The notes beneath the pieces are model-generated. The model saw only the letters and a list, made by a program, of their open reading frames with translations, was not told the origin of the DNA and did no database searches. 64,000 nt of DNA from Gluconobacter morbifer G707. GTDB lineage: Bacteria; Pseudomonadota; Alphaproteobacteria; Acetobacterales; Acetobacteraceae. The translations under genes and the position numbers were made by a program. Shown here in pieces: positions 52,102 to 63,217 of this stretch. The DNA lies in contig NZ_AGQV01000001.1 of assembly GCF_000234355.1 (NCBI RefSeq), positions 372,001 to 436,000 of the forward strand, given 5' to 3'. Each line of letters opens with the position of its first letter. The stretch's first letter is position 1.

Positions 52102-52137
52102 AAAAAGGCCGGGAGTTACTTCCCGGCCTTTTCTTTT
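52102..52137. terminator. bidirectional rho-independent terminator
   Basis: AAAAGGCCGGGA (52103-52114) and TCCCGGCCTTTT (52121-52132) form a 12-bp stem followed by CTTTT on the plus strand and preceded by an A-run. It serves the DJ-1 gene (+). On the minus strand the stem includes the last codons and stop of the STN gene. Confidence 0.87.
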
Positions 52138-52475
52138 GCCTGCGGTGTGTCTGACGGGGCGAGAGGCTGGATTTTCCAGTGATCTTCCGGGGACGTCATG
52201 TGGACTGCGTGCAGTCTGCTGCCCGACAGGGACCAGCGGAGGGCCTGTTCTGTGGTGAACGAGCCGGAAATGCCGGGAGTCTGGCGATTCTGGAGCTGTG
52301 CCGCCTCAGGGCTCATTTCCATGAAGCAGCCTGTTTTATGTGACAGGTCCTGAAGGCGTTCATCCAGCCGCTGCGGTGGAATGGTCATGGGGAAAGGACC
52401 TGGCATGCAGGCGGCGGAGGCCTGCCCACAGGCCAGCAGGGCAAACCCGGCAAGAAAAGCATAGCGGACGGACAT
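52116..52475 (-). CDS. stand-alone secreted STN-domain protein
   Basis: 119 residues from the ATG at 52475 (AAGGAA five bases upstream); the open frame runs on to 52787 without coding character. A signal peptide (VRYAFLAGFALLACGQASAA) is followed by one domain: MTIPPQRLDERLQDLSHKTGCFMEM, then GISGSFTTEQALRWSLSGSRLHAVH. This matches the short secretin/TonB N-terminal (STN) domain. STN normally sits at the N-terminus of secretins or transducing TonB receptors; here it is alone. Two Cys in the mature part may pair. It could bind a partner in the periplasm, but I see no sigma/anti-sigma pair nearby. Confidence 0.68.
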   Translation of the reverse strand: MSVRYAFLAGFALLACGQASAACMPGPFPMTIPPQRLDERLQDLSHKTGCFMEMSPEAAQLQNRQTPGISGSFTTEQALRWSLSGSRLHAVHMTSPEDHWKIQPLAPSDTPQAKEKAGK

Positions 52476-53188
52476 GGGCTTCCTTTCTGTCTTCTGTATC
52501 GCCGGAACTGCTGGTGATGCGTGTCCGGTTTCAGATGATCTGCCCGGATTGTACTCCGGTAGATCGAAGTTCAGCCTGCCATAACGGAAAGCGTCTGTCG
52601 TGGCCGTTCCGGACGGGCTATGCGGCCCGTCACTTGTAGTGGTCATTGCCACGATATTCCGGATGGGGTGGTTTTGCACATTATGCAGATAATCATGAAT
52701 CCTGGCCGCCGCCGGTATTGAAGATGAAACGCTGCTGTCAAACGTCACGGTCTGTTTTGGTCCACCTGTCTTGAGGATGGGGAACATGTCCCGTTGAGCC
52801 GAGCACGGAGATCGGATGTCGTGCTCTTCGGGGCATTGGACCGGCTTTATGATGGGATCAACGAAAAGAAATGGCGCTCCGAATGTTCCCAGCGGCTATT
52901 ATGGTTTTTGCGCATTGGGGCGATGAACGGGGCGCGAGGGCCTGGCATGAACCTAGGATAGTAGGTTCGGGCTGAGTGTCGATTTCAGCTCGGGCTGGAT
53001 CGTGAGAATGTACGCCCAATTGTCAGCGATCATGGATCATGCCGGTGTCAGATCACTCTCATGGTTTGATGTGCTTTTAGCTGGGTGAGACCAGAAGCCG
53101 CCGGAACGGGGGCTGAAACACAGAGCGGCATTTTCACGTAGGACGACATGATGTCATCCCCGGTATGGAGCATTGTCCTGAGCTGGGT
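52476..53188. other. gene-poor region of about 710 bases
   Basis: I find no convincing gene on either strand. The first part must hold the leader and promoter of the STN gene. Between 52800 and 53180 short frames exist but none has a ribosome site or a recognisable sequence, and I see no insertion-sequence ends. It may be decayed coding sequence. Confidence 0.4.
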
Positions 53189-53222
53189 GGTTCTCTCTTT
53201 AATCGCCTGGAAAGAGAGAACC
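53189..53222 (-). terminator. perfect 12-bp hairpin after the GDPD gene
   Basis: GGTTCTCTCTTT (53189-53200) and AAAGAGAGAACC (53211-53222) pair perfectly around a ten-base loop, 14 bases past the GDPD stop on the minus strand. No T-run follows the stem, so it may act as a transcript 3' end stabiliser or a factor-dependent terminator. Confidence 0.6.
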
Positions 53223-53236
53223 GTAGCCGGCCTGTT

Positions 53237-54346
53237 TTAGTTGATGCCGTCCACTGCGATGCGGCCGAGGGCCGGATCATCGGTGAAGAAGCCATCCAGT
53301 CCCATATCCAGATAGCGGCGGATTTCCGCGATCATGCCATCCGGGTTGCGGGCGTCATCTCCCGCCGTATTCCGGAGCTGGGCGGGAAGGAAATGGTTTT
53401 CCGGACGGGCGGTATAGGAGTGGACCAGAAGGCCGGCGCGATGTGCGTCTTCAATCAGGGTGGTCGGCTTCAGCCAGGCGCCCCTGCTGTCCCGGGGGAT
53501 CAGGTCAGTGTTGGATGGGCCGATCACATCCGCATAGCGCCGGATATCCCGCAGCCCGTCAGGCGTCATCAGGTCGCCGAACGTGGTTTTCTTTCCGGCC
53601 GCCAGAATATCGGCCGGGATGTCTGTCCGTTCGCCCATGAGCAGCATCAGGCGGGTCTGCGGATTGATGGACAGGATCTGCTGACGGATGCGTCCGAGAT
53701 TGTTCGTTTCGAAAGACTGGACTTCCAGCGGGGCCTGACAGGTGTAGTCATGAGCGGCGATGGTCCGGAGGAACGCCGCTTCCGGATCTAGGCCGAGACT
53801 GTGGAAATGGGTGGAATGCTTGATCTCGGGGACGAGACCAAAGACTTTTCCCGTCGCGGCGGACTGGGCGGCGACCTGTTCGATGACCTCTTCAAAGGTC
53901 GGAATCGTGAAATGATCGTTGTAGCGGGTGTTGTGAGCACGGATCTGCGACAGGCGTTCACGGGCGCGGAGAGTTTTGATTTCGTCCAGCGTGAAGTCGG
54001 TAGTGAACCAGCCGGTCTGCTGCCTGCCGTCGATGGTGATGGTGCGGCGGCGGGACGCGAATTCCGGATGGTCCGCCACATCCGTTGTTTCCACGATGTT
54101 GCTTTCATGACGGACGATCAGATGACCGTCCTTTGTCATGCACAAGTCGGGTTCGATGAAGTCCGCGCCATCCTGCATGGCTTTCGCATAGGACGCCAGC
54201 GTGTGCTCCGGGCGCAGGGCCGAAGCCCCGCGATGGGCGAAGACCATTGGCTTCGGGGCGAGGGACGGGGCTGCCTGCACTGCCGAAAGGCGCAGTGCAG
54301 GCAGGGCGAGCGGAAAAAGGCCCAGAAGATGGCGACGGGACAGCAT
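53237..54346 (-). CDS. Tat-exported glycerophosphodiester phosphodiesterase (GlpQ-like)
   Basis: 369 residues. The N-terminus MLSRRHLLGLFPLALPALRL is a twin-arginine signal (SRRHLLG), so the enzyme should be exported folded to the periplasm. The GDPD domain begins PMVFAHRGASALRPEHTLASY with the catalytic His-Arg, then FIEPDLCMTKDGHLIVRHE with metal-binding Glu/Asp and the second His. LVPEIKH and the C-terminal GLDGFFTDDPALG are also typical. It hydrolyses glycerophosphodiesters to an alcohol and glycerol-3-phosphate. It starts 28 bases after the TonB receptor stop and shares its Pho-box-like control region. Confidence 0.92.
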   Translation of the reverse strand: MLSRRHLLGLFPLALPALRLSAVQAAPSLAPKPMVFAHRGASALRPEHTLASYAKAMQDGADFIEPDLCMTKDGHLIVRHESNIVETTDVADHPEFASRRRTITIDGRQQTGWFTTDFTLDEIKTLRARERLSQIRAHNTRYNDHFTIPTFEEVIEQVAAQSAATGKVFGLVPEIKHSTHFHSLGLDPEAAFLRTIAAHDYTCQAPLEVQSFETNNLGRIRQQILSINPQTRLMLLMGERTDIPADILAAGKKTTFGDLMTPDGLRDIRRYADVIGPSNTDLIPRDSRGAWLKPTTLIEDAHRAGLLVHSYTARPENHFLPAQLRNTAGDDARNPDGMIAEIRRYLDMGLDGFFTDDPALGRIAVDGIN

Positions 54347-54374
54347 GGTTCTCCTTTCGGTTGCCGGATTTTGC

Positions 54375-56768
54375 TTACAGGGCAGCGCTGATGCTCAGGA
54401 AGAACATGCGCGGGGCGATGGGATAAGCCGAGAACTGCCCCGAGGTCTGCGTGGCGTTGATGGTGGACCAGCCTTTGGTGTTGGTGAGGTTGGTGATGTT
54501 GCCCTGAACCTTGAGGGAGGCCAGGTGGGGAATTTCGTGAAACGTATAACCCGCATTTAGGTTGAACTGTGCGTAAGGAGCAGCCCACATGTCGTTGGTA
54601 TAGGTGGCGTAACGCTTGCCGATCACGTCGCCGGTGAACTGCCCGTAGGCATGGCCCCAGTTGGTGGTGAAGACGAATTTCTCCGACCAGTCCGGCATGC
54701 CCACGACGTCTTTTCCAGCCGTATGGATGACGGATGATCCGGTGCTGTAATTATCGTTATAGACGGACTTGTTATAGGACAGGGCGTTGTAGAGCGAAAA
54801 ATGCGGGCCGAAATGGGTGGTGAAGGAAAAGTCCATGCCATCCGTCGTGACCGATCCCACATTGGCCAGTGTCGTGGCGGACCCGATGATGGAAGACAGT
54901 GTCTGCGTCGTGGCGACAGCCAGCAGGCGGTTGGAGAAGTGGACGTGGTAGTACTCTACCTGTCCCTCGATGGCGGTCAGCGGGCCGAGATTGACCTGCC
55001 GGTGTTCGCGCAGACCCGTCTCGTAGGTCCATGATGTTTCGGGGCGGCCGTTCTTCTTGAAGTCCTCGAAAGCCTGCTGGCTGGTGGCGCCCCAGGGGGT
55101 GGCATTGCCGTAGCCAGCGTCTTCATAGGACCGCATGTTTTCTTGGATGTTGGCGAACCACTGCTCGTGTTTCGAGATGTCCCAGACCGCGCCGAAAGCC
55201 GGTAGGAACGGGTTGGTTGCGTCGATTTCGCCACCCGGGGCCGTTACGGCATAGGACGGGGAGAGGGAACCGGCTTTCGCAGCCACAGGCAGGGTGCCGT
55301 TTGTATAGACCAGTTCGGATTTGAAGCCGCCCATCAGGGAGAAGTGTTTGGAGACCTGCCACGTGTCCTGAAGATGGGTCACGAAGGTGTTGGTATAGAA
55401 ATTGTTGGTGTACTGATCGATCAGCGCGTTCTGCTGCCGATCATAGGGTGTGGTGGGGTTGCTGGCGTCCAGCGGGTACCAGCGGCGGGCCTGCGTATTG
55501 TTGTTGCGCTCATACCAGCCACCAACCTCGATATGATGATTGCCGAGATGGTAGCGCAGCGTGGACATGATGCCGCCGCGGTTGTCCCAGTATTCCGTCG
55601 TGCGGGTGGCATAGCCCGAACCGCCGAAGACGCTGTTCAGATCCTGACCCGGATAATACGCGGCAAACAGGGTCGGCAGACCAGCGGCAGTGATGGGTCC
55701 GGCCACCACACCTTCGCCGAGGTCATGGTGATAATAGATCGAATTGTCCCAGTGGAGGTTGCTGTTGAAGTCATGCGTCCACTTTGCATAGGCGAGAAAG
55801 TCCTCGCGTTGGGCTGCGGAGTAATAGTTACGATAGTTGAGGCCTGCGTTCGTGTAGGCTGCAGAATTGATGTATGATTTTGCGTAATTGAAATTCGGAT
55901 AGGTGAACGGGCGGACATAAAGACCATAGCCCTGCGGCAGGGTGATGCTGTCTTCATTGGGTTCGGCCTTCTGACTCCAGTCGAAGAAGGCGGAGAAATG
56001 GTCATGCTCGTCATTATGGACGAACTTGGCATTGACCTGATAGCCGCCCTGATGGCCTGCGAAGTCCCAGGCGCGGGCGTCCTGCCGGGAAAAGGATGCA
56101 TAGGCCGAGTTGCCGTTTCCGAAATCACCCGTATCGACACGGGCGAAGGTCCGGAATGTGGACCAGCTCCCGAAAACCTGTTCGATCTGTGCGCCCCGCT
56201 TGTGCAGCGGATCCTGTGTTGTGAACTGGAGCGTGCCACCCAGATTGGATGTCGAGGCCGTACCGAGACCACCGGCGCCCGTCGAGATGGAGGCCATACC
56301 GATGTTTTCGCTGATGGCAGCACGCTGGGGCGAAAGGCCGTTGTAATTGCCGTAGTCCTGATCGCCCAGCGGAATGCCGTCCAGTGTGTAACCGAGCTGG
56401 TTCTTGCTGAAGCCGTGAACGTACAGGGAGGAATTCTGTTCGTTGTTGCCCCATGGATCGGCGTTATTGAACACGACGCCCGGCAGGATCTCCAGCGCCT
56501 TGATGGGGTTCACACCAGGCAGGATGCGCTGGATCTGGACGTGGCTCAGGGCCTGTTCGGAGCGGGTCCGTTTTGCCGTGATGACAAGCTGTTCGCTGCC
56601 GCCCTGAATGGCTGCGGCCTTGCGGGGGTCATGCTGGTGCTGGTGGGTACCATGCTTTTTCGGGGCGGGTGTGGAGGCCGCGGATGCGGACTGAAGCAGG
56701 GTCGCAACTGCAAGAGGGGAACAGAAAGCGGTTAGCAGCAGACGAGAACGCTGCGAAAGATGTGGCAT
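54375..56768 (-). CDS. TonB-dependent outer-membrane receptor
   Basis: 797 residues. A signal peptide (LLLTAFCSPLAVATLLQSASA) is followed by a short His-rich segment (KKHGTHQHQHDP) and a plug domain (QLVITAKRTRSEQALSHVQIQRILPGVNPIKALEILPGV, YTLDGIPLGDQDYGNYNG, GGLGTASTSNLGGTLQF). The rest is a 22-strand-type barrel rich in aromatic/Asn turns, ending with the aromatic-rich APRMFFLSISAAL. The ligand is unknown. Coupling to a periplasmic glycerophosphodiesterase and the Pho-like repeats upstream suggest a phosphorylated organic substrate rather than a siderophore. No STN domain is present in this receptor. Confidence 0.9.
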   Translation of the reverse strand: MPHLSQRSRLLLTAFCSPLAVATLLQSASAASTPAPKKHGTHQHQHDPRKAAAIQGGSEQLVITAKRTRSEQALSHVQIQRILPGVNPIKALEILPGVVFNNADPWGNNEQNSSLYVHGFSKNQLGYTLDGIPLGDQDYGNYNGLSPQRAAISENIGMASISTGAGGLGTASTSNLGGTLQFTTQDPLHKRGAQIEQVFGSWSTFRTFARVDTGDFGNGNSAYASFSRQDARAWDFAGHQGGYQVNAKFVHNDEHDHFSAFFDWSQKAEPNEDSITLPQGYGLYVRPFTYPNFNYAKSYINSAAYTNAGLNYRNYYSAAQREDFLAYAKWTHDFNSNLHWDNSIYYHHDLGEGVVAGPITAAGLPTLFAAYYPGQDLNSVFGGSGYATRTTEYWDNRGGIMSTLRYHLGNHHIEVGGWYERNNNTQARRWYPLDASNPTTPYDRQQNALIDQYTNNFYTNTFVTHLQDTWQVSKHFSLMGGFKSELVYTNGTLPVAAKAGSLSPSYAVTAPGGEIDATNPFLPAFGAVWDISKHEQWFANIQENMRSYEDAGYGNATPWGATSQQAFEDFKKNGRPETSWTYETGLREHRQVNLGPLTAIEGQVEYYHVHFSNRLLAVATTQTLSSIIGSATTLANVGSVTTDGMDFSFTTHFGPHFSLYNALSYNKSVYNDNYSTGSSVIHTAGKDVVGMPDWSEKFVFTTNWGHAYGQFTGDVIGKRYATYTNDMWAAPYAQFNLNAGYTFHEIPHLASLKVQGNITNLTNTKGWSTINATQTSGQFSAYPIAPRMFFLSISAAL

Positions 56769-56835
56769 GAAGGTTTTCCCGAAACGAGGCGCTGTCGAAA
56801 CGGGCGGAACCTAACCTTAAGGCTGGAGAATGAGT

Positions 56836-56875
56836 GTGAAGGTCCTGTGAAGCTGGGGTGACAGAATGATGACAG
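56836..56875 (-). promoter_or_regulatory. tandem Pho-box-like repeats upstream of the TonB receptor/GDPD unit
   Basis: On the minus strand four 7-mers occur at exact 11-base steps: CTGTCAT (56875-56869), CTGTCAC (56864-56858), GCTTCAC (56853-56847) and CCTTCAC (56842-56836). The first two form an almost perfect PhoB box (CTGTCAT-4-CTGTCAT). The array ends 67 bases before the receptor start. PhoB binds such 7-mers as head-to-tail dimers and replaces the -35 element. PhoB control is inferred. Confidence 0.75.
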
Positions 56876-62740: not shown

Positions 62741-62848
62741 GGAAAATCCTGTTTTCGCTGTCGATTGTGTGCGCTCCTAACTGTCTGGAAAACAGATTGG
62801 TTGCGTTTTTTTCTGACAGGACATGCCGATCCGGTTTCCGGATTGCCT

Positions 62849-63217
62849 CGGAACCACAGGGCATCCCGGGATGCAGAGTACCTACTCGAACTGATAGAAC
62901 AGCTTGAACAGAAGAAATGTGCGCTGGTGATTCTCTCAATGGGAGGCATCCATTCGGACACGCGCAACGTAACAGCAAAACTCATGCTGACCATGCTTGG
63001 CGCAATAGGTGAGTTTGAACGGGGATTAATTAAAGAAAGACAGCGAGAAGGAATTGCAAAAGCAAAGGAAGAAGGGGAATATCGTGGAAGAAAGCTAATA
63101 GATATGCCTCAAGCACAGGACATTCAAAAGATGAAATCTGATGGTGTTTCTGTTGCTAATGTAGCTAAGAATCGGAATATTCCCCGCATTTTATTTTATA
63201 GAGACTTAGATGATTAA
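62849..63217 (+). pseudogene. serine recombinase (resolvase/invertase) lacking its catalytic N-terminus
   Basis: The frame is open from 62765, but recognisable sequence begins near 62849 (ASRDAEYLLELIEQLEQKKCALVILSMGG) and continues through TAKLMLTMLGAIGEFERGLIKERQREGIAKAKEEG to a degenerate helix-turn-helix at the C-terminus. The first 60-70 residues of the family, with the catalytic Ser and key Arg residues, are missing and replaced by unrelated upstream sequence. I read it as a remnant of a DNA invertase/resolvase. It sits at the point where base composition changes from about 60 % GC to strongly AT-rich. Confidence 0.75.

What the first reader, a model, noticed from the sequence alone, without database searches (positions are those of the whole stretch)
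53189..56875. Tandem Pho-box array ahead of a TonB receptor and Tat-exported glycerophosphodiesterase
Seen: four 7-mers (CTGTCAT, CTGTCAC, GCTTCAC, CCTTCAC) at exact 11-base steps upstream of a TonB-dependent receptor, then 28 bases to a GDPD with a twin-arginine signal, then a perfect 12-bp hairpin. Known: PhoB binds CTGTCAT repeats with 11-bp periodicity, and GDPDs release glycerol-3-phosphate. Inference: a phosphate-starvation unit that imports a phosphodiester across the outer membrane and cleaves it in the periplasm. The receptor's ligand class would be new for TonB uptake if shown.
Basis: partly seen in the sequence, partly recalled or inferred. Interest (0 to 1): 0.8.

Follow-up and report, generated by a model that had tools for sequence, protein, structure and literature searches.

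The report
Phosphate-starvation receptor and phosphodiesterase operon
A vinegar-type bacterium and its relatives carry a two-gene unit, very likely switched on by phosphate hunger, that seems to pull a phosphorus-containing molecule through the outer membrane and cut it open; the receptor family is found beside several different phosphate-releasing enzymes.

Summary
In detail: four 7-mers at exact 11-base steps, receptor, 28-base gap, GDPD, perfect 12-bp hairpin. The array holds the only exact CTGTCAYNNNNCTGTCAY in the 2.89-Mb genome. Arrays recur upstream of the receptor in 20 of 20 Gluconobacter/Brytella and 7 of 7 Asaia loci (control 22 of 11,004 segments); repeat cores are conserved while spacers drift. 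GDPD follows the receptor in 52 of 80 named loci. The genome has a PhoB-like regulator, and a pstS-like gene has a similar box. PhoB control is very likely.

Related receptors sit beside other phosphoesterases: phospholipase C (7 loci), PhoD with FecR and a Pho box (13), metallophosphatase (1); 28 more distant receptors have none.

Best reading: a PhoB-controlled organic-phosphorus uptake unit; ligand and import are inferred. The ligand class is not new: Xanthomonas XanT-XanP imports and cleaves a sugar phosphodiester, and Flavobacterium PUS loci pair low-phosphate TonB receptors with phosphodiesterases. Six loci keep receptor and box without an adjacent GDPD, and most Acetobacter loci lack a clear box, so strict coupling is unproven. 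New variant of a known kind.

The parts
56836..56875 (-). Four-unit Pho-box-like array: CTGTCAT (56869-56875), CTGTCAC (56858-56864), GCTTCAC (56847-56853), CCTTCAC (56836-56842), 4-base spacers
   Evidence: Read directly; unique exact 18-base match in the genome; 4-unit arrays in 20/20 Gluconobacter/Brytella and 7/7 Asaia loci
56808..56813 (-). Putative -10 element TAGGTT, 22 bases after the last 7-mer
   Evidence: The letters TAG at this fixed distance are invariant in the 28 aligned arrays; promoter function inferred
54375..56768 (-). TonB-dependent receptor, 797 aa (plug + beta-barrel)
   Evidence: Pfam PF00593 4.2e-24 and PF07715 9.6e-7; AlphaFold model pLDDT 83.5 matches solved TonB-dependent transporters
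53237..54346 (-). Glycerophosphodiester phosphodiesterase, 369 aa, with twin-arginine N-terminus
   Evidence: Pfam PF03009 3.3e-40; PDB 1ydy 9e-37; H38, E65, D67, H80 present and invariant in 49 of 49 aligned proteins (window and 48 loci; 4 short or broken ones dropped)
53189..53222 (-). Perfect 12-bp hairpin, 10-base loop, after the GDPD stop codon; no T run

Best explanation
A PhoB-controlled two-gene unit for scavenging organic phosphorus. When phosphate is scarce, PhoB binds the four-unit array and transcribes the receptor and the GDPD together (control strongly supported by the sequence; binding, induction and co-transcription inferred). The receptor, powered by TonB, brings a phosphorus-containing ester, most likely a glycerophosphodiester or something larger built from one, into the periplasm (inferred). 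The GDPD, exported folded by Tat, cleaves it there to glycerol-3-phosphate and an alcohol (catalytic residues shown; reaction inferred from the family). How glycerol-3-phosphate or its phosphate then enters the cell is open: GlpT was not found over its cut-off, and UgpB, PhoX and PhoD were not found in this genome.
For: Array conservation: 4-unit score >=24.8 in 20/20 Gluconobacter/Brytella and 7/7 Asaia loci, against 22 of 11,004 control segments; over 28 distinct arrays (each registered at its best-scoring site, which always lay 105-109 bases before the receptor) entropy 0.10 bit at the TCA cores, 1.02 in spacers, 1.76 in the 5' flank. Strict TCAY-N6-TTCAC in 20/20 loci above 80% receptor identity, 17/38 at 60-80%, 0/20 below 60%, control 0.002 per 410 bases. 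PhoB-like regulator beside a histidine kinase; a pstS-like gene of the same genome has CTGTCATAAAACTATCAT 45 bases before its start, and a pstS-like gene of a relative has a 4-unit array (L075). GDPD follows the receptor in 52 of 80 loci, 10-14 bases apart in Gluconobacter, Brytella and most Acetobacter, with RR near the start in 52 of 52 (start codon chosen to favour RR). It is the only PF03009 protein of the genome. Related receptors sit beside phospholipase C (7 loci), PhoD (13) and a metallophosphatase (1); two of the phospholipase C loci have 4-unit Pho arrays (L075, L078) and 13 of 13 PhoD loci a Pho box.
Against: No expression or binding data. 11 of 60 loci above 60% identity have no GDPD next to the receptor (one, L140, ends at a contig end), and six of them (L118, L122, L124, L125, L128, L129) still have the strict box: the receptor is kept without a linked GDPD. 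21 of 38 loci at 60-80% lack the strict box, among them all Acetobacter loci tested but L138, the Neokomagataea and Zymomonas loci and six Gluconacetobacter loci; 30 of 31 miss the 4-unit threshold. The three loci at 54% with a GDPD have no box. Five of the 7 phospholipase C loci do not reach the 4-unit threshold. Small glycerophosphodiesters should pass porins and need no receptor (general knowledge). Fold neighbours include siderophore, B12 and PQQ transporters and do not tell the ligand. No excess of group-specific basic over acidic residues (6 versus 5).
Confidence: 0.68

Rival explanations
1. Co-regulated but uncoupled: the GDPD recycles the cell's own deacylated phospholipids during membrane remodelling, while the receptor imports something else that matters in phosphate starvation.
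For: The Caulobacter PhoB regulon contains both TonB receptors and GDPDs, the latter linked by its authors to phospholipid degradation (PMC11208175, passages). Six Komagataeibacter, Novacetimonas and Gluconacetobacter entanii loci keep receptor and Pho box without adjacent GDPD.
Against: Adjacency with GDPD in 52 of 80 loci and repeated pairing of related receptors with other phosphoesterases suggest a functional link.
Confidence: 0.2
2. A siderophore or metal-chelate receptor placed under PhoB control, for example because iron and phosphate supply interact.
For: Pfam names only a generic TonB receptor; many fold neighbours are siderophore transporters.
Against: No iron-uptake gene recognised among the two neighbours scanned (one has a weak match to the N-terminal part of FecA); related receptors sit beside phosphoesterases. 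No Fur-box search was made.
Confidence: 0.06
3. The array is a chance or decayed motif without PhoB function.
For: No binding data; the strict box is missing in 21 of 38 loci at 60-80% identity.
Against: Cores conserved while spacers drift; fixed distance to a conserved -10-like element; 45 matches against 0 for the reversed control in 26 genomes.
Confidence: 0.03

Closest known systems
XanT-XanP of Xanthomonas (PMC12807533, Science, Dec 2025; abstract, section 7 and passages seen)
   Same: Putative TonB-dependent transporter in one transcript with a phosphodiesterase; imports and hydrolyses a phosphodiester; shown with mutants
   Different: XanP is a 2H phosphoesterase, not a GDPD; the ligand xanthosan is made by the effector AvrBs2; the neighbouring regulator gene named in the passages is a ROK-family one; sequence relation of XanT to this receptor not tested
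Flavobacterium PUS loci, PusCD and low-phosphate TonB receptors (PMC8115612, passages seen)
   Same: Phosphate-starvation-induced TonB receptors next to periplasmic phosphodiesterases or phosphatases, some with FecR or ECF regulators, as in the PhoD cluster described here
   Different: PUSI and PUSII have a SusD-like surface lipoprotein; different enzymes; other phylum; import inferred there too
Caulobacter crescentus PhoB regulon (PMC11208175, passages seen)
   Same: PhoB controls several TonB receptors, a phosphodiesterase, GDPDs and phospholipase C; the authors suggest uptake of phosphate-containing compounds
   Different: The passages describe no receptor-GDPD operon and no named ligand
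E. coli GlpQ (PDB 1ydy, 1t8q)
   Same: Same GDPD family and active-site residues
   Different: Twin-arginine rather than an ordinary Sec signal (the latter recalled); here next to a receptor gene; below the NCBIfam GlpQ cut-off (174.5 of 254 bits)

Membership tests
Pho regulon (PhoB-controlled gene) | Direct 7-mers at 11-bp period upstream of the gene, conserved between species | tested here: met
   met for the window, Gluconobacter, Brytella and Asaia, not for all orthologs. The CTGTCAT consensus is recalled; two 11-base repeats with 7 conserved positions are described in PMC9414882 (passage)
Pho regulon (PhoB-controlled gene) | PhoB in the genome | tested here: met
   TIGR02154 281.5 bits, E 4.7e-84, just under the 296.2-bit cut-off (2 of the 14 control genomes pass it), next to a histidine kinase
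Pho regulon (PhoB-controlled gene) | PhoB-dependent induction in low phosphate | not testable with these tools
   needs RNA or reporter assay
TonB-dependent receptor | Plug and beta-barrel domains | tested here: met
GDPD (PF03009) | Family score and catalytic H, E, D, H | tested here: met
   139.1 bits, cut-off 23.6; residues invariant in 49 of 49 aligned
GlpQ (NCBIfam PRK11143 equivalog) | Score over curated cut-off | tested here: not met
   174.5 of 254 bits
Tat substrate | Twin-arginine motif in the signal region | tested here: met
   RR in the first 20 residues in 52 of 52 linked GDPDs, start codon chosen to favour RR, one (L138) a fragment; Pfam TAT_signal not reported for the window protein; export itself not testable
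XanT-XanP module | TonB transporter with a 2H phosphoesterase | tested here: not met
   the partner is a GDPD
Flavobacterium PUS (PusCD) locus | SusD-like lipoprotein beside the receptor | tested here: not met
   no such match among the four proteins scanned between 52116 and 58327

The most novel reading that the evidence does not exclude
This receptor group is a dedicated family of outer-membrane importers for phosphorus esters in acetic acid bacteria, in which the receptor is kept and the phosphoesterase partner is exchanged (GDPD, phospholipase C, PhoD, metallophosphatase), under direct PhoB control or PhoB through a FecR-type system: a proteobacterial counterpart of polysaccharide utilisation loci, for phosphorus. 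The GDPD version may serve ligands too large for porins, such as glycerol-phosphate oligomers from neighbouring Gram-positive cell walls.
Probability: 0.4. Interest if true: 0.7.

Novelty: new variant of a known kind. Interest (0 to 1): 0.52.

Why it matters
TonB receptors are usually assumed to serve iron. A receptor group that carries Pho boxes and exchanges phosphoesterases would let many 'TonB-dependent receptor' annotations in acetic acid bacteria be read as organic-phosphorus uptake, and offers a non-pathogen (Gluconobacter oxydans) in which active outer-membrane import of phosphodiesters can be tested. That could matter for fermentation, bioleaching and plant- or insect-associated growth under phosphate limitation.

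Tried and rejected
Ligand from fold: the first receptor model (16 sequences) was poor, pLDDT 55; the second (84 sequences) was good, pLDDT 83.5, but its neighbours span PQQ, siderophore, B12, haem and other transporters, so the ligand cannot be read off. A single-sequence PDB search gave no receptor hit; the profile gave one weak hit, 9rvq, E 0.004.

Positive-charge signature: residues conserved in the GDPD- and phospholipase-C-type receptor groups but rare in the others include K267, R389, T390, T391, E392, Y393 and R429, but basic ones are not in excess over acidic ones (6 versus 5); dropped as ligand evidence.

The first upstream scan used loci that were not all turned to the receptor's strand and was discarded; it was redone after orientation.

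GDPD pairing outside the family: a class-wide search found a GDPD relative in 14 genomes besides the window's own, of 289. Of 13 loci inspected (17 held), one (L214/L222, genome G330) has a TonB receptor ending just before the GDPD, by reading of its C-terminus; its receptor lies in two overlapping frames, and no Pho array was found. Too thin to build on.

Papers: ten searches listed no title or abstract start that describes a Pho-controlled receptor-GDPD unit in acetic acid bacteria; of long lists only the first rows were seen, and most subscription papers are not held. PMC4686198 (Caulobacter PhoB regulon, 2016) is not held. PMC12041372 reports a G. oxydans B58 screen with PhoB and a TonB receptor (GO_19) among its hits (passages); I could not tell whether GO_19 is this gene. 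PMC2996285 (passages): a Caulobacter TonB receptor, Cc0171, discussed with ElpS, not linked to a GDPD in the passages. PMC5082522 (passages): GlpQ in Pseudomonas exoproteomes, no mention of TonB. PMC7086022 (teichoic acids and GlpQ) was seen in a search listing only; it is the lead behind the cell-wall-oligomer idea in the novel case.
Full report
WHAT IS THERE. The window is part of a 2.89-Mb genome; its receptor is 89-90% identical to those of Gluconobacter potus and G. sphaericus. On the minus strand lie four 7-mers at exact 11-base steps (56836-56875), a TonB-dependent receptor (54375-56768), 28 bases, a GDPD (53237-54346) and a perfect 12-bp hairpin (53189-53222). Pfam places the receptor in PF00593 and PF07715 and the enzyme in PF03009. 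The hairpin is more stable than most shuffles (z -2.41, 3 of 200 as good) but lacks a T run.

IS THE ARRAY MORE THAN CHANCE. In the whole genome CTGTCAYNNNNCTGTCAY matches exactly only here; six places have one mismatch; with up to 2 mismatches there are 96 places against 54 for the reversed control. One of the six, CTGTCATAAAACTATCAT, lies 45 bases before a gene that I read as pstS (PF12849; positions). A 3-unit pattern with up to 2 mismatches finds 4 places, two of them this array, against 1 for the reversed control. In 26 genomes of the genus a related pattern with up to 1 mismatch matches in 20 genomes at 45 places: 40 are, by coordinates, two registers of one array per genome, 5 are elsewhere; 6 genomes have no match and the reversed control gives none. 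The 28 loci held for these places other than the window's own all sit directly upstream of the receptor.

CONSERVATION. A scan of named genomes found 459 relatives and kept the best 80 loci. With a 4-unit score, 20 of 20 Gluconobacter/Brytella and 7 of 7 Asaia loci reach 24.8; so do 1 of 31 other orthologs, 0 of 3 loci at 54% with GDPD and 0 of 17 loci at 51-55% without GDPD (78 of 80 loci; L111 and L116 had too little upstream sequence). Controls: 22 of 11,004 segments. Over 28 distinct arrays, each registered at its best-scoring site, the mean entropy is 0.45 bit in the 7-mers, 0.10 at their TCA cores, 1.02 in the spacers and 1.76 in the 5' flank; those sites all lay 105-109 bases before the receptor. 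A TAG 22 bases after the last 7-mer is invariant and looks like a -10 element (function inferred). A stricter test, TCAY-N6-TTCAC within 410 bases upstream, finds the box in 20 of 20 loci above 80% identity, 17 of 38 at 60-80% and 0 of 20 below 60%, against 0.002 per 410 bases in controls. Against the reading: the strict box is missing from all Acetobacter loci tested but L138, from the Neokomagataea and Zymomonas loci and from six Gluconacetobacter loci; three Acetobacter loci (L114, L117, L139) have a looser two-unit match.

THE ENZYME. GDPD lies downstream in 52 of 80 loci: 49 of the 60 above 60% receptor identity and 3 of the 20 below. Gaps are 10-14 bases in Gluconobacter, Brytella and most Acetobacter and 113-313 in Asaia. 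All 52 have RR near the start, with the start codon chosen to favour it; one is a fragment. H38, R39, G40, E65, D67, H80, E174 and K176 are invariant in 49 of 49 aligned proteins (window and 48 loci; four short or broken ones, L086, L091, L101 and L138, left out). It is the only PF03009 protein of the genome. It resembles E. coli GlpQ (1ydy, E 9e-37) but stays under the NCBIfam GlpQ cut-off.

THE REST OF THE PATHWAY. A PhoB-like regulator (281.5 bits, cut-off 296.2) sits next to a histidine kinase, with pst-like genes beside it by my reading of the ORFs. GlpT is not found over its cut-off (best E 3.2e-4); UgpB, PhoD and PhoX are not found. The genome has two PF04185 proteins; one, a phospholipase C type with a twin-arginine start by reading, has no receptor or array in the 1.5 kb on either side. 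How glycerol-3-phosphate is used is therefore open.

THE RECEPTOR FAMILY. From the matches listed I examined 49 loci, most with about 5 kb on each side (L170 and L192 are cut by contig ends), for GDPD, phospholipase C, PhoD and metallophosphatase with one query each at E 1e-4. Of 18 receptors 34.0-36.5% identical to the window's, 7 have a phospholipase C 24-57 bases downstream on the same strand (three scanned by Pfam: PF04185, PF05506 and TAT_signal in each); an eighth (L165) has one 3.7 kb away on the other strand. The 28 receptors below 34.0% have none of the four. The other three loci are closer relatives: one (L074, 54%) has a metallophosphatase upstream of the receptor (PF00149). Two of the 7 (L075, L078) reach the 4-unit threshold for a Pho array, five do not; a relative with no such enzyme nearby (L076) does. 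Among the 80 named loci, all 13 Gluconobacter paralog loci at 51-54% have PhoD on the opposite strand and FecR on the receptor's strand (a sigma-factor-like ORF before FecR was read by eye in L152). All 13 have TTCAY-N4-CTGTCAY in the stretch between PhoD and FecR, pointing towards FecR; the pattern was written after seeing the boxes, and elsewhere in the 80 loci it occurs once, upstream of the Acetobacter ortholog L139. In a quick tree of 63 receptors that I chose, all 23 phosphoesterase-linked ones lie on one side of a branch with 99% SH-aLRT support together with 14 unlinked ones, and 26 unlinked ones on the other; long branches make the join of the GDPD and phospholipase C groups unsure.

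MECHANISM. Shown: array, its conservation, gene order, catalytic residues, twin-arginine start, receptor fold (predicted model). Inferred: PhoB binding, co-transcription, TonB-driven import, the ligand, cleavage in the periplasm. The strongest argument for import is the recurring pairing of related receptors with different phosphoesterases. The strongest argument against strict coupling is that six loci (L118, L122, L124, L125, L128, L129: Komagataeibacter, Gluconacetobacter entanii, Novacetimonas) keep receptor and box with no GDPD adjacent; whether those genomes have a GDPD elsewhere was not tested. One Komagataeibacter locus (L126) has both box and GDPD.

WHAT IS KNOWN. XanT-XanP imports and hydrolyses the phosphodiester xanthosan in Xanthomonas: in a xanT deletion no loss of xanthosan from the medium was seen (PMC12807533, section 7; abstract and passages). 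Flavobacterium PUS loci combine low-phosphate TonB receptors with periplasmic phosphodiesterases, and some include FecR or ECF regulators (PMC8115612, passages). In Caulobacter PhoB controls TonB receptors, GDPDs and phospholipase C (PMC11208175, passages). So the idea and the ligand class are not new; the acetic-acid-bacterial unit, its conserved 4-unit array and the enzyme exchange did not show in the listings of the ten paper searches made (call numbers under Tried and rejected).

VERDICT. Observation confirmed; Pho control very likely; phosphodiester import the best but unproven reading; a new variant of a known kind.

Noticed in passing
L148-L159 and L161 (13 Gluconobacter loci): Second receptor of the same group in a conserved cluster with PhoD and FecR and a Pho box pointing towards FecR: PhoB may act through a FecR/sigma-factor system.
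   Followed up: partly
L075 1684 (+) and 11919 (-); L078 11923 (-): Pho arrays before a pstS-like gene and before receptor-phospholipase C pairs in other genomes of the family.
   Followed up: partly
window 52116-52787 (-): Small protein with a weak match to the N-terminal part of FecA (4.8e-6, far under the cut-off) and no barrel.
   Followed up: no
L069 5366-5383 (-): CTGTCATGAAAATGTCAC upstream of a membrane protein that I read as a polysaccharide flippase, followed by a gene that reads like another receptor (by eye).
   Followed up: no
L136; L022: Receptor orthologs with in-frame stops: one in Zymomonas mobilis (L136; still followed by a GDPD) and two in genome G126 (L022).
   Followed up: no
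L222 4685-8253 of the reverse strand: Outside the family, a different TonB receptor ends directly before a GDPD, with a gene that reads like a phosphoesterase divergent to it (by eye).
   Followed up: partly
window 62765-63217 (+): ORF that reads like a serine recombinase/resolvase (by eye, not searched).
   Followed up: no
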